From the NCBI GenBank assembly GCA_005888755.1, contig VBBQ01000011.1:1-56680 (forward strand): DNA of 56,680 nucleotides, written 5' to 3'. A program made the translations under genes and the position numbers. The stretch is from Candidatus Bathyarchaeota archaeon (GTDB lineage Archaea; Thermoproteota; Bathyarchaeia; 40CM-2-53-6). The notes beneath the pieces are model-generated. The model was not told where the DNA came from. It worked only from the letters and a program-made list of their open reading frames with translations, and did no database searches. Positions 7,205 to 50,410 of the stretch are shown in pieces. Within the stretch, counting starts at the first letter, position 1. Every line of letters starts with the position of its first letter.

Positions 7205-8653
7205 GTGTTCAAGAGTCCACGAAAGACTCCGAACGCTGTGGAGAATTTGGCCGAAAACTGGGACGTAGTAGTAGTTGGCGCCGGCATAGCGGGCTGTATG
7301 ACAGCTGGCACAATAGCCCTGAAGGGCAAAGGCAACGTAAGCGTTCTCCTCATGGACCGAAACCCGCCGACCGAAGCGGGTAAGAAAACTGTTCTAGGCT
7401 GGGTCTGTGGCGACGCGGTTGGCGAGCACCACATCAAGTACATTCACGATCATATCGGGACGAGCTACGGCAAGCCCGAGATGGAAAACCGAGTAACAGC
7501 AGTCTACGTCTACTCCCCGGACATGAAGGTCAGGGTCCCATTCGAAGGACCCGGATACGTTCTCGACAGGCCCAAGTTCGCCAAACGCCTCCTCGATGAT
7601 GCCTTGAAGGCAGGCGTTGAATTCCGTGGCAGCGTTCAAGCAACCGATCTAATCCAAGAGAACGGAACAATCGTTGGGCTACATGGTCAAACCGTTGGAC
7701 CCGGAGTAAACCAGCCGTTTGAGATCCGATCAAAACTCATCATCGATACCTCCGGAATGTCCACCAAGCTCCGCCGGAACCTTCCAATTCCCAGTCACAT
7801 AGAGAAAGAGATCAACAAGGACGATGTAGAACCAACAGCGCGTCTAAACGCGAAACTCAGGGACGGGATCGAAGTAGAACCCTTCCACTGCGACATCTAC
7901 CTCGACGCGGAGAAAGCACCCGGAGGCTACCTATGGCTCTTTCCAAAATCCGAAGACAAAGTCAACATCGGCCTAGGCATTCAACAAAAGAGAAGCTCGA
8001 AGCCGCTCAGCGCCCTCTTGAAAGATTGGTTGGCAGCAGACGACCGATTCAAAGACATTCAACCATTGAGCGATGACAGCAATCTGACGGGATCCTGGCA
8101 GGTCTCGGTTAGACACCAGAACGATTGCCTCGTCGCCAACGGCTACATGATCTGCGGAGATGCAGCATGGTTCCCCAACCCGATCAGCGCAGGCGGCATC
8201 GGCCCAGGCCTCATAGGCGGAGTCATGGCCGGAGAAGCAGCAGTGCGGGCAATCGAGGCGAACGACTTCAGCGAGAAACAGCTTTGGCAATACAATTTAG
8301 ACTTCGTCAATCACTACGGCAACAAAACGGCCGGCCTTGAAGTATTCCGAATGTACCTACAGACACTGAACAATGATCAGATCAATTATGGAATGAGACA
8401 CTTCCTCTCATCAGACGAAGCCACAGAAATCTCGCTGGGAGAAATGCCCCACGTTTCGGCCGCCAAGAAGATAGTCAAACTGTTCAGGGGCCTGGGATCA
8501 TACAAGGCATTCAGCGGACTTGTGTTCACGATGAGTAGAATGAGAGCGCTAAACGAGCTCTACCAGAACTATCCCAAGGACCCCGCCCAGTTCGATGCAT
8601 GGAAAGCTAACGTCGATTCGATCCTGGCTCAGGGCCGAGCCCGTTTCCACTAA
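7205..8653 (+). CDS. Geranylgeranyl reductase family FAD-dependent enzyme
   Basis: The 482-residue flavoprotein starts with a Rossmann FAD motif (VVVVGAGIAGCMTAG). It has a DRPKFAKRLLDDA segment, the family motif GGYLWLFPK near residue 240 and a second FAD-binding region GDAAWFPNPISAGGIGPG. Archaeal enzymes of this family saturate the geranylgeranyl chains of membrane lipids, and some act on menaquinone side chains. Divergence from the MenA-like gene makes a quinone or lipid role plausible. The start is GTG. A TnpB element lies immediately downstream in convergent orientation, and its ORF overlaps the last 105 bases of this gene on the opposite strand. Confidence 0.85.
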   Translation: MFKSPRKTPNAVENLAENWDVVVVGAGIAGCMTAGTIALKGKGNVSVLLMDRNPPTEAGKKTVLGWVCGDAVGEHHIKYIHDHIGTSYGKPEMENRVTAVYVYSPDMKVRVPFEGPGYVLDRPKFAKRLLDDALKAGVEFRGSVQATDLIQENGTIVGLHGQTVGPGVNQPFEIRSKLIIDTSGMSTKLRRNLPIPSHIEKEINKDDVEPTARLNAKLRDGIEVEPFHCDIYLDAEKAPGGYLWLFPKSEDKVNIGLGIQQKRSSKPLSALLKDWLAADDRFKDIQPLSDDSNLTGSWQVSVRHQNDCLVANGYMICGDAAWFPNPISAGGIGPGLIGGVMAGEAAVRAIEANDFSEKQLWQYNLDFVNHYGNKTAGLEVFRMYLQTLNNDQINYGMRHFLSSDEATEISLGEMPHVSAAKKIVKLFRGLGSYKAFSGLVFTMSRMRALNELYQNYPKDPAQFDAWKANVDSILAQGRARFH

Positions 8654-9883
8654 ACCACGAACAGTAACATCGTGGTTCTGCTGGTTTCGTCTATAGACCA
8701 GCTTCGGGGCATCGACTCCGGGGATTACCGTAGGCGTCGGGTTCCCTTTCACAGCTTCAACTGCTCCGCCTTGCGCCTCTAGAAGGATGGGAGGCCGGGA
8801 ACGTGCGAACCTCACCCGTCCCCGCCGAGACAGGTTAACAGCCGCGACCCTGTCCCGGTCCATCACCACTCGACACTTGCTGCACCAGAGCTTACGTCCC
8901 AGTCTCTTGTCCGATTGGAGTCTCTCCCCGCATCTCGGACAGGTCACACTGGAACCTCCGGTCTCACGCCTCGACAAACGAACAATCGGCAGGCCTATCC
9001 ATCGCGCCTTGTACTCGATCTGTCGTTGAGCCTTTCCGAAACTCCACCCGTTCATCCTGCCACGATACTTTCTACCCTGACCATTACCCTTACGATAGAG
9101 GGATCGGATGTCCTCGATGTTCTCAAGAACTATTGCTGTTCTCCCTTGGATTGCGAAGGCGACGATGGTCTTTGTTGCGTTATGGAGCAGATGGTCAGTC
9201 CTGGCGGTTCGGCGTCCCCCATACTTCGACGATATTCTCGTTCTTATCCGATCATCGTCTCGTCTGAACGAAGCTATGATGCGGGTCGTAGTGCTGGTTA
9301 TTCTCACCGACTCCGACAAATCATAGCGATAAGTCTGATTATCGTTTCCAAATGTTAGATTGCGGAGATTACGGTCCACACCAACGGTGGAGTTGCACTG
9401 TAATAGGGGAGCGTCCCGGGCGATGCAGAGACTCAATCTGCTCGTTGTGAGAGTGAAAGAGCGAACTTTGACTCCTGGTTGCAATATGATCTTTAACGTG
9501 TGCTTGGTCAAGGGTATGCTGAAACGTTTCCCTCTCGATACCGGAATATGCAAATATCCGTTCTCTATCTTGAAGCCGTAGCAGGAGACGAGCTGCTGTC
9601 TGAAGGAGTACGGGGTTCGGGTGGTGAAGCCTCTTCGGATAGACTTCTTCCTAGCCGCGAGTATTCCTGCGGCGCGTGATATTGCGCAGAGTTTGTAGTA
9701 GCTTGGAGAATCGTAATGGGCAAGCTGATTGTAGGAGAGCAGAGAAAGCTTCTTCAGCGAAGATACACTGTTGACTAGACCAATCCGTAATGAATCGTTG
9801 ACCATCCTCCTGAACACCTCCAGCAGCATTAGAACGTCGCTTGATGAAACGTAGTATTGCCAGACCGACTTGACAGCCAACAC
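8549..9883 (-). CDS. tnpB: TnpB-family RNA-guided nuclease (IS605/IS1341 OrfB), intact
   Basis: The 444-residue ORF has the full TnpB layout: an N-terminal helical region, a RuvC-like domain with D in VGVDRNLRN and E in AIVLENIED, a zinc knuckle pair CPRCG and CSKC, and the last catalytic D in MDRDRVAAVNL. It is the only uninterrupted copy of three in the window. No TnpA is nearby, so this is a solo (IS1341-like) element. The start is GTG. The frame does not stop inside the element: after GVDAPK the last 49 residues are encoded by DNA beyond the right end, some of it inside the geranylgeranyl reductase gene. Confidence 0.85.
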   Translation of the reverse strand: MLAVKSVWQYYVSSSDVLMLLEVFRRMVNDSLRIGLVNSVSSLKKLSLLSYNQLAHYDSPSYYKLCAISRAAGILAARKKSIRRGFTTRTPYSFRQQLVSCYGFKIENGYLHIPVSRGKRFSIPLTKHTLKIILQPGVKVRSFTLTTSRLSLCIARDAPLLQCNSTVGVDRNLRNLTFGNDNQTYRYDLSESVRITSTTTRIIASFRRDDDRIRTRISSKYGGRRTARTDHLLHNATKTIVAFAIQGRTAIVLENIEDIRSLYRKGNGQGRKYRGRMNGWSFGKAQRQIEYKARWIGLPIVRLSRRETGGSSVTCPRCGERLQSDKRLGRKLWCSKCRVVMDRDRVAAVNLSRRGRVRFARSRPPILLEAQGGAVEAVKGNPTPTVIPGVDAPKLVYRRNQQNHDVTVRGLVETGSALSQDRIDVSFPCIELGGVLGIVLVELV

Positions 9884-9900
9884 AATAAAAGGCAGGAACC
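8701..9900 (-). mobile_element. Solo TnpB element, copy 1; right end near 8701
   Basis: Comparison with the copy at 29.3-30.5 kb shows sequence identity running to GATGCCCCGAAGC and then stopping abruptly, which defines the right end at 8701. The left end is not resolved and is taken as close to the tnpB start. By analogy with characterised TnpB systems, the RNA guide would be the flanking sequence just outside the right end, here reading TGGTCTATAGACGAAACC on the minus strand. The insertion sits 48 bases past the stop of the geranylgeranyl reductase. Confidence 0.6.
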
Positions 9901-10166
9901 AAGGTCCAAGGTATAAGCGGGAGAGGCATCCGACGATAAGCTAACTGAGCTCATCACTGGAAAGGGCTACCGCAATGCAAGAATTCGTAATTGCTCCGAA
10001 TGTCTGTATGGGGCAAAGGATGTTTGGTGGGCGTGCAGTTCTGCTTGACGACCTTGATTGCAAGCACACATGCCATCTGATTGCGATGACTAGATAACCA
10101 AGAGACGTCCCTGAACCAAATCGCTCGAGAAACAGTCAATATATATGCCGATTCGCTCGCTTCGCT

Positions 10167-10736
10167 TTGAAGACGTACTTGCCTTCTCCAGAAATTGGTG
10201 CATCCTTTGACTCGAGACCGCCAGATGATCAAGCACTTGTAATGCACATGCTATCTTCCGAATCTGATGCGACCTACAGTTTCCAGGGAATGAAGAGAAG
10301 GCTCGGCCTACACCAAGAGAAACTCACACGAATTCTCAAACGCCTCGAAGATGACAACCTTGTCTTGAAAACGGACGAGGGATACAAGGTCCTACATCAC
10401 TCTAGGAAGACCACACGCCATGCTGACGACGGAGAGCCCGTTATCCGAGGCCAACTACCCCCAGGAATCGACCCCAACTTCCTCACTTCCAAACTAAAGG
10501 GCCGATGGTTCAAGAATTTCCGCTGGCTAGGCTACTCCTCCACCGAAGCAGGCCAATCGCTTTACTGGATAACGGAAGACGGACGGTTCCAACTAGTAGT
10601 ACGGCTTGCTCACGCGGAGATTCTGGTCTGGAGCCAACCTACAAACGAGGTTGAGACGCACTCTTCGATAGCGGCGGGTTACGAGCTCTTTGACAGAATC
10701 AGCCGTATCCTTCCCCAAACCGAAGACTACAGCTAG
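10167..10736 (+). CDS. Winged-helix DNA-binding protein, 189 aa
   Basis: Residues 20-75 resemble a MarR/ArsR-type winged helix: QALVMHMLSSESDATYSF followed by MKRRLGLHQEKLTRILKRLEDDNLVLKTDEGYKV, the usual recognition helix and wing. The C-terminal 110 residues contain WFKNFRWLGY and a probable ligand or dimer domain that I do not recognise. The start is TTG, close to the AT-rich TATATATGC at 10140. It stands alone on the plus strand. Its targets are unknown. Confidence 0.65.
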   Translation: MKTYLPSPEIGASFDSRPPDDQALVMHMLSSESDATYSFQGMKRRLGLHQEKLTRILKRLEDDNLVLKTDEGYKVLHHSRKTTRHADDGEPVIRGQLPPGIDPNFLTSKLKGRWFKNFRWLGYSSTEAGQSLYWITEDGRFQLVVRLAHAEILVWSQPTNEVETHSSIAAGYELFDRISRILPQTEDYS

Positions 10737-29090: not shown

Positions 29091-29339
29091 ATTCTCAACC
29101 TAGACCTAGCTCAGAGCTTCCTTTTTAACCTAGGCGTAACCCTCTCAAGTTCTTGGACCTCTAGGGCGATATTGCACCGAGGAAGCTCGGTTCGTGGCTC
29201 AGAAACATATTGGACCTCTGGCTTTAGAGTGGCCTCTTCAATTCAGCCCTCAGTCCCTCGTGGCGCCTCAAGAACGTTTCTTAACGAGGCTTGATCATAG
29301 TCGGGTACCTCTCATCCTCAAGTTGTCAGGAGATGTCTT

Positions 29340-30496
29340 TCTCCCGTGCAGCCTCTGAAGTCTATTTGGCAGTACTACGTCCCAACACGAGACGTTCTGG
29401 GGTTGTTGGAGACGTTTAAGAAAATGGTTAACGACTCGATAAGAGTTGGTCTAGCCAACAACGCGACATCGCTGAGAAGGCTCTCACTCCTCTCCTACAA
29501 CCAGCTCGCTCATTACGATTCTCCCAGCTATTACAAGCTCTGCGCCATATCTCGAGCAGCAGGAATGCTGGCAGCTAGGAAAAAGTCTCTAAAGAGAGGC
29601 TTCGCGGCAAGAGAACCCTACGCGGTCAAACCTCAACTCGTGAGGGTTAGAGATTCCCATCACATGAGGGAGACGGTTAAGCATACCCTTGACCAAGCAC
29701 ACTCAAGAAGCTATTTCCCAAGCAATCGCAACTGTCCGCTCATTCACTCTCACACGGACCAGACTGATCCTGTGCATCGCTCATGATGCTCCCAAAATAG
29801 AATGCGTGTCGATGGTGGGAGTGGACTGTAATCTTCGTAACCTCACTGTTGGAAACGACGATCAAACCCGTTACTACGACACTTCCGAGACGATGAGAAT
29901 AGCCAAAGTCACAACTCGGATCGTCAGCTCCCTCAAGAGGAATGATGTTCGGATAAGGGAGTCGGTAGCGTCAAAATATGGACGAAGGAGATCCGCCAAG
30001 ACCCGACATGTCCTTCATAATGCGACGAAGGAGATTGTTACTGTCGCGGTTCAAAAGAGAACAGCGATCGTCCTAGAGAACATTGAGGGCATCCGACGCC
30101 TCTACCAGAAGGGTAACGGTCAGGGTAGAAAGTATCGGGGTAGAATGAACGGCTGGAGTTTCGGAGAGGCTCAACGACAGATCGAATACAAAGCCCGATG
30201 GGCTGGACTACCGATAATCCGTTTGTCTAGGCGTGAGACCAGAGGTTCCAGTGTGACTTGTCCGAGATGCGGGGAGAGACTCCAATCGGACAAACGACTA
30301 GAACGCAAGCTCTGGTGCGGTAAATGTAGAATAGTAATGGACCGAGACATGGTAGCAGCGATCAACCTGTCTCGGCGGGGACGGGTGAGGTTCGCACGTT
30401 CCCGGCCTCCCATAGCTGAGGCGCAAGGCAGGGCAGTTGAAGCAATGAAAGGGAACCCGACGCCTACGGTAATCCCCGGAGTCGATGCCCCGAAGC
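29340..30496 (+). mobile_element. Solo TnpB element, copy 2, between sufA and sufC
   Basis: Identity with copy 1 ends at GATGCCCCGAAGC, giving a right end at 30496. The left end is uncertain and set near the tnpB start. The flanking sequence that would serve as guide reads CAACTTCGCACACTGCGA. It sits 39 bases past the expected sufC stop, convergent with sufC, just as copy 1 sits past its neighbour's stop. It separates sufC from the rest of the suf block. Confidence 0.6.
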
Positions 30497-30615
30497 CAAC
30501 TTCGCACACTGCGAGTTCGTCGAACCACCATAGGCTCAAGTTAGTGCTTCTTTCTTTATCCAGTCGTAGCCTCTCGCCTCCAGAACGTCGGCGAGCTCAG
30601 GTCCGCCAGATTTGA
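29346..30615 (+). pseudogene. tnpB: TnpB-family gene, frameshifted and internally deleted
   Basis: Two frames together cover a TnpB closely related to the copy at 8.5-9.9 kb. The N-terminal part (29346-29786) matches up to KPQLVR; the CYGFKIENGYLHIP region is missing or scrambled, and the rest (from about 29720) continues in another frame with VGVDCNLRN, AIVLENIEG, the CPRCG and CGKC pairs and MDRDMVAAINL. The catalytic residues survive but the product would be split. As in the intact copy, the frame runs past the right end (30496) without a stop, adding 39 residues from flanking DNA. Confidence 0.8.
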
Positions 30616-34095: not shown

Positions 34096-37000
34096 GTGAC
34101 CATCAATCTGTTTTCCATGGCGCGTGGTCGGGTCCGGATGAGAAATCACCGCAAGCGGCTAGTATTCAGTTTCCTGATCTCGCTTTTTCTTCTTGTCGGT
34201 TTCGTTAGGCCTGCTTTTGCTGCTGGAATAACTTTTGTAACATCTTCCACAAACGCGGGAACCAATTTCGTAGCGACAACAACGGCGGTAAGTGTCAATG
34301 CCGGGGATACTGTTGTTGCCATTGGCGGTGCCCAAAGTGGAACCGTTGTGTTCGCCGATAGTGAATCTGATACCCCGACTCTAGTAAACACCGAGGTTGA
34401 CAGTGGTGCAACTATCTTTGAACAAATGTCGTACTTCACCGTCGCCACGACAAGTGCGACCTATGTTGTAACCGCGACATTCTCAGGCGGAACGTCTGGT
34501 AGAAATTCATTGATCGTTCTAGTATACGGCGGGGTAACTAGTGTAGGAAGTAATGCTATCAGTACTGGCTCGAGTACGAGTCCGAGCGTTGTTTTAACAA
34601 CCGCAACGACCAGCGATTATGCGGTTGTGGGATTCAGCTGGCGCGGGAATAGTGGTGACTGCACTACAGGTCTCGTGGGCAACGATAGGGCTCTCGTAGC
34701 CTCGGGAGGTGCAGCCCCACGAGTCACCGGCTCCGGATTTGATAATACTGGTAGTACCTCCGTTACAAACACTGAGTGCCTAGGAACAAGTTCAGCGTGG
34801 GTAGCGATAGCAGTTGACCTCAAAGGCAGTGTCGCGTACACCCAGTCCCTCTCCGCTTCAGTTGGTTCGTCAGCGAGCCTTTCTGAGAAGAACTCTCTCT
34901 TCCGCCCCCTGAGCGGGTCTTTGAATTTAGCATCAAGTCTCACCCAGAAGAACTCGCTCTTTAGATCCTTGAGCAGTTCTCTGAATCTGGCTTCGAGCCT
35001 CGCTGAGAAGAACTCTCTCTTCCGAACCATAAGCGGTTCTTTCAATCTGGCCTCAAGTCTCGTTGAGAAGAATTCTATCTTCAGAACGCTCAGCGGATCC
35101 CTAGCACTTACGACGAAAATGATGTTTACCTCAATTCAAGCATCCAAGACCACAGCTGTCTCCTGCACTCTGCAACCCGGGGCCGTAACTACGTGTACAC
35201 TGAACCCAACTTCCTTCATTTCCGCCGCCTCAAGTCAGGCAGCGAAAAACTCTCTGTTGAGAGCGGTCATCGGATCATTAGGCCTTAGCGGAAGCTCTGC
35301 AGTGAAGAACTCCCTCTTCAAAACACTCACCAGCTCGCTGACCTTGGCCTCAAGTTTTGCGGAGCATACTGCGTTGTCTAGAAGCCTCACCGGGTCTCTG
35401 ACTCTAGCCTCAAGCTTCTCCAAACAATCCTCAGTGTCAAGATCGCTCTCCAGTTCACTCGGTCTTGCAAGTTCCGGGACGAAGGGCCTTGCCAGGACTT
35501 TGACAGGGTCCCTCGGCTTCGCTACTAGTTTCGCTGAGCATGCTGCATCGTTCAGGTCATTGTCAAATTCATTGTCTACAGCCTCAACTTTTGCTAAGCA
35601 AAGTTCACTATTCAGAACCCTTACAGGTTCGTTTTCCCTGGCATCCGGTCTTGCCGAAAGATCCTCACTATTCAGATCTATGACTTCTACCTTGGGCCTA
35701 GCATCGAGTCTTGCCAAGCAAACTTCACTGTTCAGATCTCTTTCCAGTTCACTGACCCTGGCTGGTTCTCAGATCAAAGGCTTGGCTAAGGCCTTGACTG
35801 GTTCGCTAGGCCTTCTCTCGAGCTTCTCTGAACACACGTCATTGTCTAAGTCCCTGACTGGCTCCCTCGGGTCCACCTCAAGCTTTTTCGAGCACACTTC
35901 ATTGCTCAGGTCACTGACCGGAGCAATTGGTGCAGCTTCGAGTTTTGCGGAACATACTTCGTTGTTCAGGTCGTTGTCGGGCTCGCTCACATTAGCCAGC
36001 TCTGAGACTAAAGGTCTGGCTAAGACATTGACCGGCTCACTAGGATCGGCCTCTAGTCTCATCGAACACACTTCTCTGTTTAGATCCCTGTCAAGTTCGT
36101 TGTCTCTGGCCTCTACCTTTACAGAGAAAACATCTCTCTTCAGAACTCTCACCAGTTCGTTGTCCTTAACTTCAGGTTTATCCGAACATTCCTCGCTGTT
36201 CAGAGCTCTTTCTAGCTCACTGACCTCGGCTAGTTCTGAGACAAAGGGTCTAGCCAAGACGTTTACAGCCTCGCTAAGCTTAGCTTCGAGTCTTGGCGAG
36301 CATACCTCGCTGTTCAGATCACTGACCAGTACGCTTGGCTCGTCTGCGAGCTTTGTCGAGCACGCTTCACTGTTCAGATCATTCTCTAGTTCGCTGGGAT
36401 TCACAGCTTCAGTGCTCAAAAGCCGTATCGTAGCCCTCAGCGCCTCCTTTGGAACAGCGTCAGCCCTTACCCTTCACAATTCGCTGTTCAGGACACTTTC
36501 CAGTTCGTTGTCCCTAACATCCAACTCTGCCGCGAGGTCATCGGTGTTCAGGTTATTCACTGCTTCGCTTGGTTTAGCCTCAAGCATCGCCGAAAAATCT
36601 TCGTTCTTCCGGGCACTGGCCAGCTCGCTAGGTCCTGCCTCAAACTTTGTTGAGCACGCTTCATTGTTCAGGTCCTTGAGTGGGGCATTTGGCTCCGCTT
36701 CGAGCTTTGCTGAACATACTTCATTCTTCAGACTCTTTTCCGGATCCCTAGGTTCAGCCTCTAGTTTTGCCGAGAAGTCCTCGCTCTTCCGATCCCTTGC
36801 CAGTTTCCTAGGACTTCCTAGCTCTGAGACCAAAGGTCTAGCTAAGACCCTGAGCGCCTCTCTGGGTTCAGCTGCGGGTTTAGTGGATCATGTTTCGCTG
36901 TTCAGATCTCTCTCCGGTTCCATAGGTCTCGCAACTTCCTTTTTCAGAGGCCGGACTGTAAACCTGAGTGCTTCTCTCGGTGCGGCCTCAAGCCTTGTTG

Positions 37001-39222
37001 ATCATCTTTCACTGTTCAGATCCCTCTCCAGTTCGATAGGTCTCTCGAGCTCCTTCTTTAGAGGCCGGACTGTAAACCTGAGTGCTTCACTCGGTTCAGC
37101 ATCCAGCTTCCTAGAACACCTCTCACTGTTCAGGTCCCTGTCCGCCTCACTGGGTGAGACAGCTTCCTTCTTCAGAGGTCGAACCGTGAATCTTGGCGCA
37201 TCAATAGGCCCGGCTTCAAGTCTTACTGAACATCTCTCCCTGTTGAGGTCCCTAACCGGCACTCTTGGCTCTTCTTCAGGTCTTCTAGACCACATATCAC
37301 TGTTCAGGTCGCTGAGCGGCGCGCTCAACACGGCCTCTGGCCTTGCTAGTCATAATTCGCTGTTCAGATCACTGACCAGCTTGTTCTCCTTGCCTTCCGG
37401 TTTTGCCGAAAAAGCTTCGTTGTTTAGGTCGCTTTCTGGAACACTTGGAGCCAGCTCAAGTCTTGTTGATCATAATTCGTTCGCTCGGTCTATTAGTGGA
37501 TCGCTTGGTTCAGCCTCGAGCTTAGCAGAGCGTATTTCGGTATTCAGGAATCTGACCGGTTCACTGACTCTTGCTAGTGCTCAGACCAAAGGAGTTGCAA
37601 AGAGTTTGAGTGCTTCACTCGGCTTTAGCGGAGGGTTCCTAGAGCATGTTTCGTTGTTTAGGTCTTTGAGCGGTTCGTTGGGTCTAGGGAGTTCGCTGTT
37701 CAGAGGCCGCACCGTGAACCTGAGCGCGTCGTTGGGTTCGGCCTCTAGTCTTGCAAAGAGGTACTCCTTCTTCAGATCTCTGACTGGGGCGCTGGGTCTT
37801 GCCAGCGCTTTCTTCAACGGTCAAACTGTCAACCTAAGCGCTTCGTTTGGTTCAGCCTCAAGCGTCTCTGAGAAGAGTTCGTTCTTCAGGTCTGCGAGCG
37901 CGACTCTGGGTCTAGTTGCTTCCGAGACCAAAGGACTTGCGAGGATCTTGACTGGCTCTCTGGGTTCGGCCTCGAGTCTTTCTGAGAAGAACTCGATCTT
38001 CCGGTCCGTGTCCATGGCCCTGGGTCTTTCGTCTTCTCAAATCAGGGGTCTCGCCAAGACCCTGAGTAGTTCGCTAGGGGCCTCTTCGATTTTCGCGGAG
38101 AAGACTTCCGCGTTCAGATCTTTGACTGGTTCTATGGGTTTTGTGAGCTCTCAGTTCAAGGGTCTTGCGAAATCCTTGGGAGCTTCGCTCGGTCTAACAT
38201 CAAGCGTTGCGGAGAAAACCTCGTTGTTCAGATCACTCAGCAGTTCAATAGGCCTCTCAGCGTCTTTCTTCAGAGGCCGCACCGTCAACTTGGGCGCTTC
38301 GATTGGTTCGGCTTCGGGCATTACAGAGCGGACCTCCTTCTTCAGGTCTCTCTCAGGGTCCCTGACGCTAGCCGGTTCACAGGCAAAGGGTCTCGCGAAG
38401 GCCCTAAGCGCCTCACTAGGTTCAGCATCGGGCTTCCTGGAGCATCTCTCGCTTTTCAGATCTCTCGCAGATTCACTTGGTCTTTCAAGCTCTCAGCAAA
38501 GGGGTCCAAGCATAACACTGAGTGCTTCATTGGGAATGGCCTCGAGTTTCGCTGAAAAGTCATCTCTCTTCAGGTCTTTCAGCAACTCCATTGGTGTCGC
38601 TACTTCTCAGAGCAAGGGTTTCAGTGAGCCTCTCAGCGCCTCGCTGGGTGGCGCTTCCATGTTGTCTGAGCACACTTCGTTGTTCAGATCATTTTCTGGC
38701 TCGATCGGTCTAGGCGCTTCCTACTTCAGAGGTCGCACCATTGACCTGGGCGCTTCAATCGGTTCAGCATCGAGCTTCTTCGAACACGTGTCGCTTGTGA
38801 GATCTCTCTCCGGATCCCTATCTTCGGGTTCGAATGGTGGAGAGAGTTCTTCGTTCTTCAGATCTCTGAGTGGTTCATGGAGCATGAAAGCAGTTTATGC
38901 GCGGGGAACAAAGTTTGTGCCTGTGGCTCTGGGGACAAACTTTGGTAGTGGAGAAGTTCTAATCGGTCGCTATGGTTGTTTCAATTGCAGCAGTAATACA
39001 GGGGACTTCGCCTTCCTGGTGATCGCTCTCGGGGTAGCAGCTTTCGGCGTTTACGCTGCTAAACAACGACATCAATCTTCAGGCCCTCCAACAAAGCCTG
39101 GGGAGGAGAAGGTTTCCGTTGATGAAGAAGGCTGGGAGACAAAAGGATCTAGCAACGCCGAAGGGAGAGCTGTCAATCCACCCAAAGATAAAGAAGGTTG
39201 GGAGACGAGGCCTGAAGGCTAA
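34096..39222 (+). CDS. Giant repeat surface protein, 1708 aa
   Basis: A signal peptide (VFSFLISLFLLVGF then AFAA) leads into a beta-rich domain of about 210 residues. Residues 253-1594 are about 67 tandem units of 20 residues (type SLGSASSFAEHTSLFRSLSG) mixed with 18-residue variants ending FFRGRTVNLSA or ETKGLAKTLTA. One early unit is interrupted by about 40 residues with two Cys. After the repeats come a CFNC pair, a transmembrane helix near 1634-1655 and a cytosolic tail with EEGWETK and KEGWETR. The start is GTG. It is probably a long stalk or adhesin on the cell surface. The DNA copies differ at many synonymous positions, so the array is old and kept by selection on protein. Confidence 0.85.
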   Translation: MTINLFSMARGRVRMRNHRKRLVFSFLISLFLLVGFVRPAFAAGITFVTSSTNAGTNFVATTTAVSVNAGDTVVAIGGAQSGTVVFADSESDTPTLVNTEVDSGATIFEQMSYFTVATTSATYVVTATFSGGTSGRNSLIVLVYGGVTSVGSNAISTGSSTSPSVVLTTATTSDYAVVGFSWRGNSGDCTTGLVGNDRALVASGGAAPRVTGSGFDNTGSTSVTNTECLGTSSAWVAIAVDLKGSVAYTQSLSASVGSSASLSEKNSLFRPLSGSLNLASSLTQKNSLFRSLSSSLNLASSLAEKNSLFRTISGSFNLASSLVEKNSIFRTLSGSLALTTKMMFTSIQASKTTAVSCTLQPGAVTTCTLNPTSFISAASSQAAKNSLLRAVIGSLGLSGSSAVKNSLFKTLTSSLTLASSFAEHTALSRSLTGSLTLASSFSKQSSVSRSLSSSLGLASSGTKGLARTLTGSLGFATSFAEHAASFRSLSNSLSTASTFAKQSSLFRTLTGSFSLASGLAERSSLFRSMTSTLGLASSLAKQTSLFRSLSSSLTLAGSQIKGLAKALTGSLGLLSSFSEHTSLSKSLTGSLGSTSSFFEHTSLLRSLTGAIGAASSFAEHTSLFRSLSGSLTLASSETKGLAKTLTGSLGSASSLIEHTSLFRSLSSSLSLASTFTEKTSLFRTLTSSLSLTSGLSEHSSLFRALSSSLTSASSETKGLAKTFTASLSLASSLGEHTSLFRSLTSTLGSSASFVEHASLFRSFSSSLGFTASVLKSRIVALSASFGTASALTLHNSLFRTLSSSLSLTSNSAARSSVFRLFTASLGLASSIAEKSSFFRALASSLGPASNFVEHASLFRSLSGAFGSASSFAEHTSFFRLFSGSLGSASSFAEKSSLFRSLASFLGLPSSETKGLAKTLSASLGSAAGLVDHVSLFRSLSGSIGLATSFFRGRTVNLSASLGAASSLVDHLSLFRSLSSSIGLSSSFFRGRTVNLSASLGSASSFLEHLSLFRSLSASLGETASFFRGRTVNLGASIGPASSLTEHLSLLRSLTGTLGSSSGLLDHISLFRSLSGALNTASGLASHNSLFRSLTSLFSLPSGFAEKASLFRSLSGTLGASSSLVDHNSFARSISGSLGSASSLAERISVFRNLTGSLTLASAQTKGVAKSLSASLGFSGGFLEHVSLFRSLSGSLGLGSSLFRGRTVNLSASLGSASSLAKRYSFFRSLTGALGLASAFFNGQTVNLSASFGSASSVSEKSSFFRSASATLGLVASETKGLARILTGSLGSASSLSEKNSIFRSVSMALGLSSSQIRGLAKTLSSSLGASSIFAEKTSAFRSLTGSMGFVSSQFKGLAKSLGASLGLTSSVAEKTSLFRSLSSSIGLSASFFRGRTVNLGASIGSASGITERTSFFRSLSGSLTLAGSQAKGLAKALSASLGSASGFLEHLSLFRSLADSLGLSSSQQRGPSITLSASLGMASSFAEKSSLFRSFSNSIGVATSQSKGFSEPLSASLGGASMLSEHTSLFRSFSGSIGLGASYFRGRTIDLGASIGSASSFFEHVSLVRSLSGSLSSGSNGGESSSFFRSLSGSWSMKAVYARGTKFVPVALGTNFGSGEVLIGRYGCFNCSSNTGDFAFLVIALGVAAFGVYAAKQRHQSSGPPTKPGEEKVSVDEEGWETKGSSNAEGRAVNPPKDKEGWETRPEG

Positions 39223-49007: not shown

Positions 49008-50344
49008 TCAGCTTGAAACCGAGTAAACAAGATGCTTGTTCTTTGGTTCTGTTAAGTCTTCTTCATCTGGCCTTGTTGTAGTTGTGGGTTGTTGACTTAA
49101 CTTGCCTCCATCGACTTTGAGGATTAGGGTTGCGTTCTCCGGTTCCCGTTCCTCTACCATTGCTTCACCTGGAGGCCCGTCAGGGCTGAACCTCAGCCCT
49201 CCCGAAGCTATATTTCTAGCTGCGTTCTCGTCCCTGTCTAGGACGGTGCCGCACTTGGGACACCATAGTTTTCGCTGGGTGCTCTCTAGGGTCTTGTACC
49301 CGCATATTGAGCACTGTTTAGACGTGTTCCTAGCTGGAACGTAGATTACCTTCAATCCTTCCCATCGCGCCTTGTACTCTATCTGTCGCTGCAGCTCTCC
49401 ATAGCTCCAATTGTTCATCCGTGCCCGATAATTTCTGCTTCGAAAGCTGCCTCTGCGATACAACCTTCTCAATCCAGTCAGTTTCTCCATGACTGTCCCA
49501 TACCGTTTTGTCCTCGCATCGTCAACTATTCTCCTGGACACGTTGTGGAGTATTGGTTGTACGCGGTTCCGCTGCTTCTCTCCATACTTGGAGAAGACCC
49601 GCGCCATTGTTCGGGAGTCGTTTCTCTTGAACCGGCTCTTGACGTAGCGATAATCAGCCTTGATCTTGTTTGCTTTGGACAAATCGAATGTTCGAACTCT
49701 CCCGTCCGTTGATGCGACTGTCACATTGTCCAAATTCCTGTCAACACCGACGTATCCTTTCGGTTCGATCTCAACTGTTTCTTTCGAGTATGTGATGCTT
49801 AGCGAGTCTGAGGTTAGAGTGACTGATCGAGCGTCGTGCCCTGAGAGAACCTGGAGCGTACGACTGTTCAGTTTGACATAAACGTACCGTCGCGGTCTGA
49901 CTGGTAGCCTGAGAAGACCATTCTGGATCTTAAACCCGTAACACGTAGTCAGCATCAGGTTCTTAGCGCATGGAATGTTTGCCCGGGGTTCTTCTTCTCG
50001 GCCTTTCGATGGTTGTGAAGTATACCAGTGGCTGTGCTGATCGCGCAGAGCCTATAATAGCTAAGCATGTTACGGTTGAGACGATGATACGATTTCAACG
50101 ATAGAGTCTTGAAACTAGAAACGTTCTCTTCTATTCCAACAGCTATGCAGACGTTCACCATACGTCTAAACTCGTGCAGGAGATGCAGGAGATTGGGTGA
50201 AGCATGATATTTCTGTACGACCGTCTTCCAAGCCAGAGCGACCCACGTCCAAAGAACCGATTGCGTTTCTCTGCCTAAATAGGTCAGAGAGAATGACGAA
50301 TAACGAATACACGGATTCAGTTTTATCACGACGAGACTCACCAA
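49008..50344 (-). pseudogene. tnpB: TnpB-family gene, frameshifted (copy 3, divergent type)
   Basis: Two overlapping frames, 50344-49955 and 49955-49008, meet at TGATG. The upstream frame encodes the helical N-terminus (LHLLHEFRRMVNVC) and the downstream one the RuvC core with D in VGVDRNLDN, E in TVMEKLTGL, CSICG and CPKCG knuckles and D in LDRDENAARNI. In the intact copy these parts are continuous, so one base is probably lost; translational coupling through TGATG is an alternative. It is only distantly similar to copies 1 and 2, hence a separate element. The N-terminal start is uncertain. Confidence 0.75.
49101..50260 (-). mobile_element. Solo TnpB element, copy 3; right end near 49101
   Basis: The 3' part aligns to the right ends of copies 1 and 2: GGGAACC-like, TAATCC, then AGTCGATG and an AAG at the edge. 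This puts the right end near 49101 and about 100 bases upstream of aspS. The frame continues past it for 30 residues before TGA. The left boundary is not resolved. No TnpA is present. Confidence 0.5.
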
Positions 50345-50410
50345 TCCCTCGATCCGACGAAGAGTTGACAGACTCCTTTTTCTACCAATTCCCTACATCG
50401 AGCCCAAGGG

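What the first reader, a model, noticed from the sequence alone, without database searches (positions are those of the whole stretch)
49008..50344. All three tnpB ORFs run open through the right end of their elements
Copies 1 and 2 share sequence to GATGCCCCGAAGC and then diverge, yet the tnpB frame has no stop before that point and continues 49 and 39 residues into flanking DNA. Copy 3, a distant relative, keeps a similar right end (TAATCC, AGTCGATG, AAG) and also reads on for 30 residues. The C-terminal codons therefore overlap the RNA scaffold, and the first residues after it are encoded by the guide. Each insertion would make a TnpB with a different tail.
Basis: partly seen in the sequence, partly recalled or inferred. 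Interest (0 to 1): 0.65.

Follow-up and report, generated by a model that had tools for sequence, protein, structure and literature searches.

The report
TnpB hitchhikes in an inverted-repeat transposon
The three nuclease genes do run past the end of their mobile elements, but this is mostly decay: most relatives stop inside the end, and the real surprise is that this RNA-guided nuclease (TnpB) rides in a classical inverted-repeat transposon that duplicates 8 bases of its target, an arrangement I did not find described for bacteria or archaea.

Summary
The open frames are real, but the right end was placed roughly 30-60 nt too early. Homology among copies continues past GATGCCCCGAAGC through a covarying hairpin to a conserved ...ACAGAACC. 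Uninterrupted sites in relatives resume exactly after it (8673 and 49044). True right ends: 8674, 30526, 49045; flank-encoded tails are 40, 28 and 11 residues. In 52 of 68 copies the frame stops inside the element, 42 at one codon in the hairpin's 3' arm. Copies 2 and 3 are frameshifted pseudogenes. Read-through tails are no longer than chance, and that region is dispensable in ISDra2 TnpB.

The more interesting result: these tnpB elements are not IS200/IS605. They have GGTTCTGTTAA... terminal inverted repeats and 8-bp target duplications (14 of 41 within one mismatch; 0 of 1640 mispaired). IS6-type DDE elements in the class share the tips and duplication length. A TAM-like motif (YTTR-like) lies directly 5' of the duplication on the left side only (T-R: 24/27 versus 1/27 on the right). 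I infer a trans-mobilised transposon carrying TnpB, whose guide begins with the duplicated target and which cuts empty sites. Guide activity and trans-mobilisation are inferred, not shown.

The parts
8674..9951 (-). Copy 1 element, left end (AGCTCAGTTAGC...) to right end (...CAGAACC)
   Evidence: Right end: flank homology resumes at 8673 in 7 relatives. Left end by alignment to other copies; its TIR is degenerate and no 8-bp duplication is recognisable.
8549..9883 (-). Copy 1 tnpB, uninterrupted 444-aa frame: residues 1-403 element, 405-444 flank
   Evidence: Pfam PF07282 E=1.6e-14.
8674..8702 (-). Copy 1 right-end hairpin GCTGGT/ACCAGC and terminal AGAACC; the usual in-frame TAA is lost by compensatory stem changes
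8549..8673 (-). Copy 1 read-through into flank, antisense to the 3' end of the neighbouring oxidoreductase-like gene (7205-8653, +)
29280..30526 (+). Copy 2 element (left end approximate), right end GTCGAACC
   Evidence: flanks nearly contiguous without the element in L181 of a relative.
29346..29786 (+). Copy 2 tnpB N-terminal fragment (frameshifted)
29689..30615 (+). Copy 2 tnpB C-terminal fragment; last 28 residues in flank
30495..30526 (+). Copy 2 right-end hairpin (AACT-CGCA/TGCG-AGTT) and terminal GAACC
49045..50375 (-). Copy 3 element (family B), left end GAGTCTGTCAACTCTTCGTCGGAT, right end ...GACTTAACAGAACC
   Evidence: Empty sites in four relatives; TIR matches at 49045-49062 and 50358-50375.
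49955..50344 (-). Copy 3 tnpB N-terminal fragment (frameshifted)
49008..49955 (-). Copy 3 tnpB C-terminal fragment; last 11 residues in flank
   Evidence: PF07282 E=5.9e-24.

Best explanation
The three tnpB genes belong to a multi-copy family of non-autonomous transposons of soil Bathyarchaeota-type archaea. SHOWN: each intact element runs from a left terminal inverted repeat (GGYTCTGTTAACT..TCGTCGGAT), through tnpB, to a right end that overlaps the 3' part of tnpB and finishes with a covarying hairpin and ACAGAACC; insertion duplicates 8 bp; the tnpB stop normally lies in the hairpin. Sixteen of 68 copies, among them the three in this window, lost that stop by changes in the hairpin and run on for a chance distance. 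INFERRED: an IS6-type DDE transposase with the same repeat tips, encoded elsewhere, moves the elements in trans. TnpB binds an RNA made from the right end whose guide starts with the duplicated 8 bp and the flank, and cuts the empty allele (motif YTTR + target), so that repair copies the element back. This would favour the one insertion orientation in which the motif lies on the left. Whether TnpB has a tail of 0 or 40 foreign residues probably does not matter.
For: Right ends: alignments and empty sites. Stops: 52/68 inside, 42 at the same position. TIR and 8-bp duplication: exact left/right identity only at length 8 (10 copies; 1 at length 9; none at 5-7 or 10-12); at most one mismatch in 14/41 versus 0/1640 mispaired controls; also in tnpB-less MITE-like copies. 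No Y1 TnpA in the genome. IS6-type DDE elements with the same tips and 8-bp duplications in the same genus (L202) and class (L197, L199, L201, L207). Oriented motif: T at -2 in 26/27, T-R 24/27 left versus 1/27 right. Hairpin covariation: 23 double-change cells, 0/500 shuffles, slid controls far lower. TnpB identity: PF07282, NCBIfam guided_TnpB, alignment to ISDra2 TnpB. Dispensable C-tail in ISDra2. Organism: relatives are Bathyarchaeota MAGs.
Against: No transcript or protein data. No transposase of this type was found in the window's own genome, and a full-length one in only one relative of the genus; the assembly is fragmented, so absence is weak. Transposase-bearing and tnpB-bearing elements share the tip and spacing of the TIR, not its whole sequence. 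Three elements without a guide-RNA end (L197, L201, L207) also show a T-rich motif on one side, so part of the motif may be a target preference of the transposase; the fixed orientation argues for a TnpB effect, but the left and right TIRs differ slightly and the transposase could tell them apart. NCBIfam's TnpB model (NF040570) scores copy 1 below its cut-off (83.6 versus 100).
Confidence: 0.8

Rival explanations
1. One reading: the element lacks a tnpB stop by design, so every insertion encodes TnpB with a different, guide-encoded tail.
For: All three window copies read past the true right end; so do 13 other copies, one of them (L141) with an intact frame and a near-intact 8-bp duplication.
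Against: 52/68 copies stop inside the element, 42 at the identical codon; family A copies at contig edges carry the stop; tail lengths do not exceed chance; two of three window copies are frameshifted; the tail is dispensable in ISDra2 TnpB.
Confidence: 0.04
2. Ordinary IS200/IS605 or IS1341-type tnpB elements; the duplications and inverted repeats are incidental.
For: tnpB-only organisation as in IS1341; right-end hairpin next to the guide as in IS605; T-rich motif 5' of the insertion.
Against: IS605 insertion makes no target duplication and has no TIR; here 8-bp duplications are found at 14/41 against 0/1640; LE and RE tips are inverted repeats shared with DDE elements; no Y1 transposase in the genome.
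Confidence: 0.05
3. TIR transposon carrying tnpB as inert cargo: the motif and its orientation come from the transposase alone, and TnpB has no role in target choice or retention.
For: Three of the guide-less DDE elements show a similar motif on one side; a motif next to the duplication could be a DDE target preference.
Against: Strict orientation (24/27 versus 1/27) relative to the guide-RNA end, also in tnpB-less copies that keep that end; the covarying hairpin and intact frames in many copies suggest that the RNA and protein are maintained.
Confidence: 0.3

Closest known systems
IS200/IS605 and IS1341 tnpB elements (ISDra2 and relatives)
   Same: TnpB nuclease; right end overlapping the 3' end of tnpB with a hairpin before the presumed guide; motif 5' of the insertion; tnpB-only organisation as in IS1341.
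   Different: TIRs and an 8-bp target duplication; no Y1 TnpA; mobilised, by inference, by an IS6-type DDE transposase.
IS6 (IS26) family
   Same: GG tip with CTGT motif in the TIR, 8-bp duplication, DDE_Tnp_IS240 domain in the transposase of matching elements (NCBIfam IS6 129.5 bits, cut-off 125, for L197; 102.8, below the cut-off, for L202).
   Different: The tnpB elements carry no transposase; the matching transposases have an extra N-terminal SWIM/zinc region; the 2021 IS6 review (PMC7986276) names a single passenger-gene member, a hypothetical protein, and never mentions TnpB.
Eukaryotic Fanzor1 and Fanzor2* in cut-and-paste DNA transposons (PMC10711439)
   Same: RNA-guided TnpB homologue inside a TIR/TSD transposon, some non-autonomous; TIR forms part of the guide-RNA scaffold.
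   Different: Archaeal TnpB. In Fanzors the duplication is reported to belong to the scaffold; here the motif lies directly before the duplication, which predicts that it is part of the guide.
PATEs / MITEs
   Same: Short element ends without a gene.
   Different: Here the short copies (147-400 bp) keep the guide-RNA-like right end with TIR and 8-bp duplication.

Membership tests
TnpB RNA-guided nucleases | RuvC D-E-D with TNB/zinc-finger region | tested here: met
   PF07282 above cut-off in all three; GVDRN...VLENI...DRDRVAAVN and two CxxC in copy 1; aligns to ISDra2 TnpB 8h1j/8bf8. NF040570 above cut-off for copy 3, below for copy 1.
TnpB RNA-guided nucleases | Guide RNA from the right end, extending into flank | not testable with these tools
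   Conserved scaffold-like sequence and covarying hairpin; no RNA data.
IS200/IS605 | Y1 (HUH) TnpA | tested here: not met
   No PF01797 in the own genome; the control genomes ring.
IS200/IS605 | No target-site duplication, no TIR | tested here: not met
   8-bp duplications and TIRs.
IS607 | Serine recombinase TnpA, insertion between matching dinucleotides, no TSD | tested here: not met
   8-bp duplication present; the serine recombinase itself was not searched for.
IS1341 group | tnpB alone between element ends | tested here: met
   No other gene in the elements of about 1.28 kb; but the ends are not IS605-like, so I do not file it there.
IS6 family (as mobile end type) | TIR with GG tip and CTGT, 8-bp duplication | tested here: met
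   compare PMC7986276.
IS6 family (as mobile end type) | Own IS6 DDE transposase | tested here: not met
   None in these elements or in the genome; present in look-alike elements of relatives.

The most novel reading that the evidence does not exclude
A prokaryotic TnpB system that has moved from Y1/serine elements to DDE, IS6-type inverted-repeat transposons with 8-bp target duplication: the guide starts with the duplicated target, the TAM-like motif is read from the left flank, and TnpB-dependent retention fixes the orientation of surviving insertions, including short copies that carry only the guide-RNA end.
Probability: 0.55. Interest if true: 0.75.

Novelty: new variant of a known kind. 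Interest (0 to 1): 0.55.

Why it matters
TnpB is described as belonging to IS200/IS605 and IS607 elements, with its homing role tied to their excision mechanisms; the status of tnpB-only (IS1341) elements is called unclear in PMC9956272. A TnpB family amplified in a DDE-type transposon with target duplication would show that the nuclease can serve a mechanistically different transposon in prokaryotes, as Fanzor does in eukaryotes, and gives a testable case: the duplicated 8 bp should be the first guide bases and the left-flank motif the TAM. The original point, open frames through the right end, is ordinary drift.

Tried and rejected
(1) Right end at GAAGC: rejected by alignments and empty sites. 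(2) IS605 ends with TnpA: no Y1 transposase, TSD present. (3) Rfam: no guide-RNA family hit in the window, only a tRNA. (4) An IS6-type transposase in the own genome: none. (5) Blind search for TIR plus exact TSD around PF13610 hits without the consensus gave no convincing element; the consensus-guided search then found five. (6) A functional reading of the long tail of copy 1: not longer than chance, antisense to the neighbouring gene, and the tnpB copy in a similar position in a relative (L164, 57% identical to the query, N-terminally truncated) has only a 4-residue tail. (8) Literature: 8 searches found no prokaryotic TnpB with TIR and TSD; only openly licensed papers are held, so a report elsewhere may exist.

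Full report
CHECK OF THE OBSERVATION. The three tnpB frames are as described: copy 1 is one uninterrupted frame of 444 codons (8549-9883, -), copy 2 is split by a frameshift (29346-29786 and 29689-30615, +) and so is copy 3 (49955-50344 and 49008-49955, -). All three read beyond the element. Copies 1 and 2 do stop matching each other at GATGCCCCGAAGC.

WHERE THE RIGHT END REALLY IS. The own genome (48 contigs, 2.0 Mb) holds about a dozen copies and fragments of the family. Aligned in register, they continue past GAAGC with a stem of varying sequence (CTAACTC..GAGTTAG, CTGGT..ACCAG, CCAAGTC..GACTTG) and a constant ACAGAACC; flanks differ directly after it. The same holds for about 60 loci from related genomes. 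For copy 3, four relatives have the site without the element: flank homology stops at the left end and resumes at window 49044 (49042 in one), directly after ...AACAGAACC. For copy 1, seven relatives resume at window 8673 (two more at 8672 and 8658), directly after ...CAGAACC. For copy 2 one relative (L181) has the two flanks nearly contiguous. Right ends are therefore 8674, 30526 and 49045.

THE STOP CODON. In 68 copies with a resolved frame, 52 stop inside the element and 42 of them at the same codon, 7 nt before the end (AGT TAA CAG AAC C). Family A copies cut off at contig edges of this genome, which look like the youngest because they broke the assembly, have this stop. In the other 16 the stop is out of frame because the hairpin loop changed length, or gone because the stem changed. 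Their tails in flank are 0 to 40 codons (median 4.5) against a median of 11 over all flank frames. The hairpin itself is maintained: 7 pairs, 87% of cells paired, 23 cells with changes on both sides, 0 of 500 shuffles as high, slid controls 9-40% paired. Copy 1 illustrates this: stem positions changed on both sides kept the stem and removed the TAA.

DOES THE TAIL MATTER? Probably not. Residues 376-408 of ISDra2 TnpB are disordered and dispensable for cleavage (PMC10097598), and stop codons after 376 are tolerated in a mutational scan (PMC11844463). Copy 1 aligns with ISDra2 TnpB only to about that region.

WHAT THE ELEMENT IS. The left ends begin GGYTCTGTTAACT..TCGTCGGAT, the inverted repeat of the right tip. 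Comparing the bases before the left end with those after the right end in 41 copies, exact identity appears at length 8 (10 copies; 1 at 9; none at 5-7 or 10-12); at most one mismatch is seen in 14 of 41, against 0 of 1640 mispaired combinations. These are 8-bp target-site duplications. Y1 transposase is absent from the genome. Elements of 2.9-4.0 kb in the same class, one of them in the same genus (L202), carry a DDE transposase of IS6 type with a SWIM-like zinc region, between repeats GGTTCTGTTA.. or GGTACTGT.. with 8-bp duplications. NCBIfam's IS6 model reaches its cut-off for L197 and not for L202. IS6 elements are described with GG tips, a CTGT motif and 8-bp duplications (PMC7986276). 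I infer that the tnpB elements are non-autonomous and moved in trans by such a transposase.

THE ORIENTED MOTIF. In 27 guide-end-bearing insertions with a recognisable duplication, the base two before the duplication on the left is T in 26 and the last two bases are T-R in 24; the same count on the right side is 1 of 27 for T-R. The consensus is close to YTTR. In an empty site this motif directly precedes the 8 bp that follow the right end, as a TAM precedes the guide-matched target. Short copies without tnpB (147-400 bp) that keep the guide-RNA end obey the rule too. Caveat: three of the guide-less DDE elements also show a T-rich motif on one side, so the transposase may contribute; orientation is the part that points to TnpB. 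In Fanzor transposons the duplication is reported to be in the scaffold (PMC10711439); here the motif position predicts it is in the guide.

MECHANISM (inferred). Transposase from another element inserts the tnpB element and duplicates 8 bp. TnpB with its right-end RNA (guide = duplication + flank) recognises motif + target in the unoccupied allele but not the occupied one, where element sequence follows the first 8 bases on the left and no motif precedes them on the right. Cutting lets repair copy the element in, as proposed for ISDra2 (PMC8612924). Insertions in the other orientation lack the motif and would be lost more easily.

NOVELTY. The overlap of tnpB with its RNA is known; open frames through the end are drift. 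A prokaryotic TnpB in a TIR/TSD transposon was not found in the papers searched; the eukaryotic counterpart is Fanzor. I file it as a new variant of a known kind.

Noticed in passing
window 49045-50375 and the same site in relatives G005, G013, G015, G017 (L305, L278, L264, L296): The same intergenic site holds a family B element in two species (own, G005) and family A elements in three others, and is empty in four (L306, L311-L313); G017 keeps the duplication GTAGAAAA/GTAGAGAA. Repeated use or exchange of elements at one site, in a distribution that does not follow flank similarity.
   Followed up: partly
own genome C5:32278, C8:25500, C13:55388; relatives L240, L274, L255, L261: Copies of 147-400 bp without tnpB keep both TIRs, the 8-bp duplication and the guide-RNA-like right end; candidates for guide RNAs used by TnpB in trans.
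   Followed up: partly
L202:4417-7501, L197:2136-6131, L199:6552-10174: DDE elements whose duplication directly abuts the end of another element (...ACAGAGCC-AGCGAAGA-GGTTCTG...), i.e. insertion exactly 8 bp from a neighbouring element's tip.
   Followed up: no
window 34096-39222: A 1708-codon frame built of degenerate repeats with 114-bp and 60-bp spacing.
   Followed up: no
window 9952-10179 and L164 (G004:C52): About 225 bases left of copy 1 are absent from the uninterrupted sites of most relatives but shared with G004, where an N-terminally truncated tnpB of another subfamily sits at the same left junction.
   Followed up: partly
insertion sites of the family: A longer context resembling TTAARNCTTR often precedes the duplication, and the centre of the duplication is A-rich; may reflect promoter-proximal insertion or a transposase preference.
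   Followed up: no
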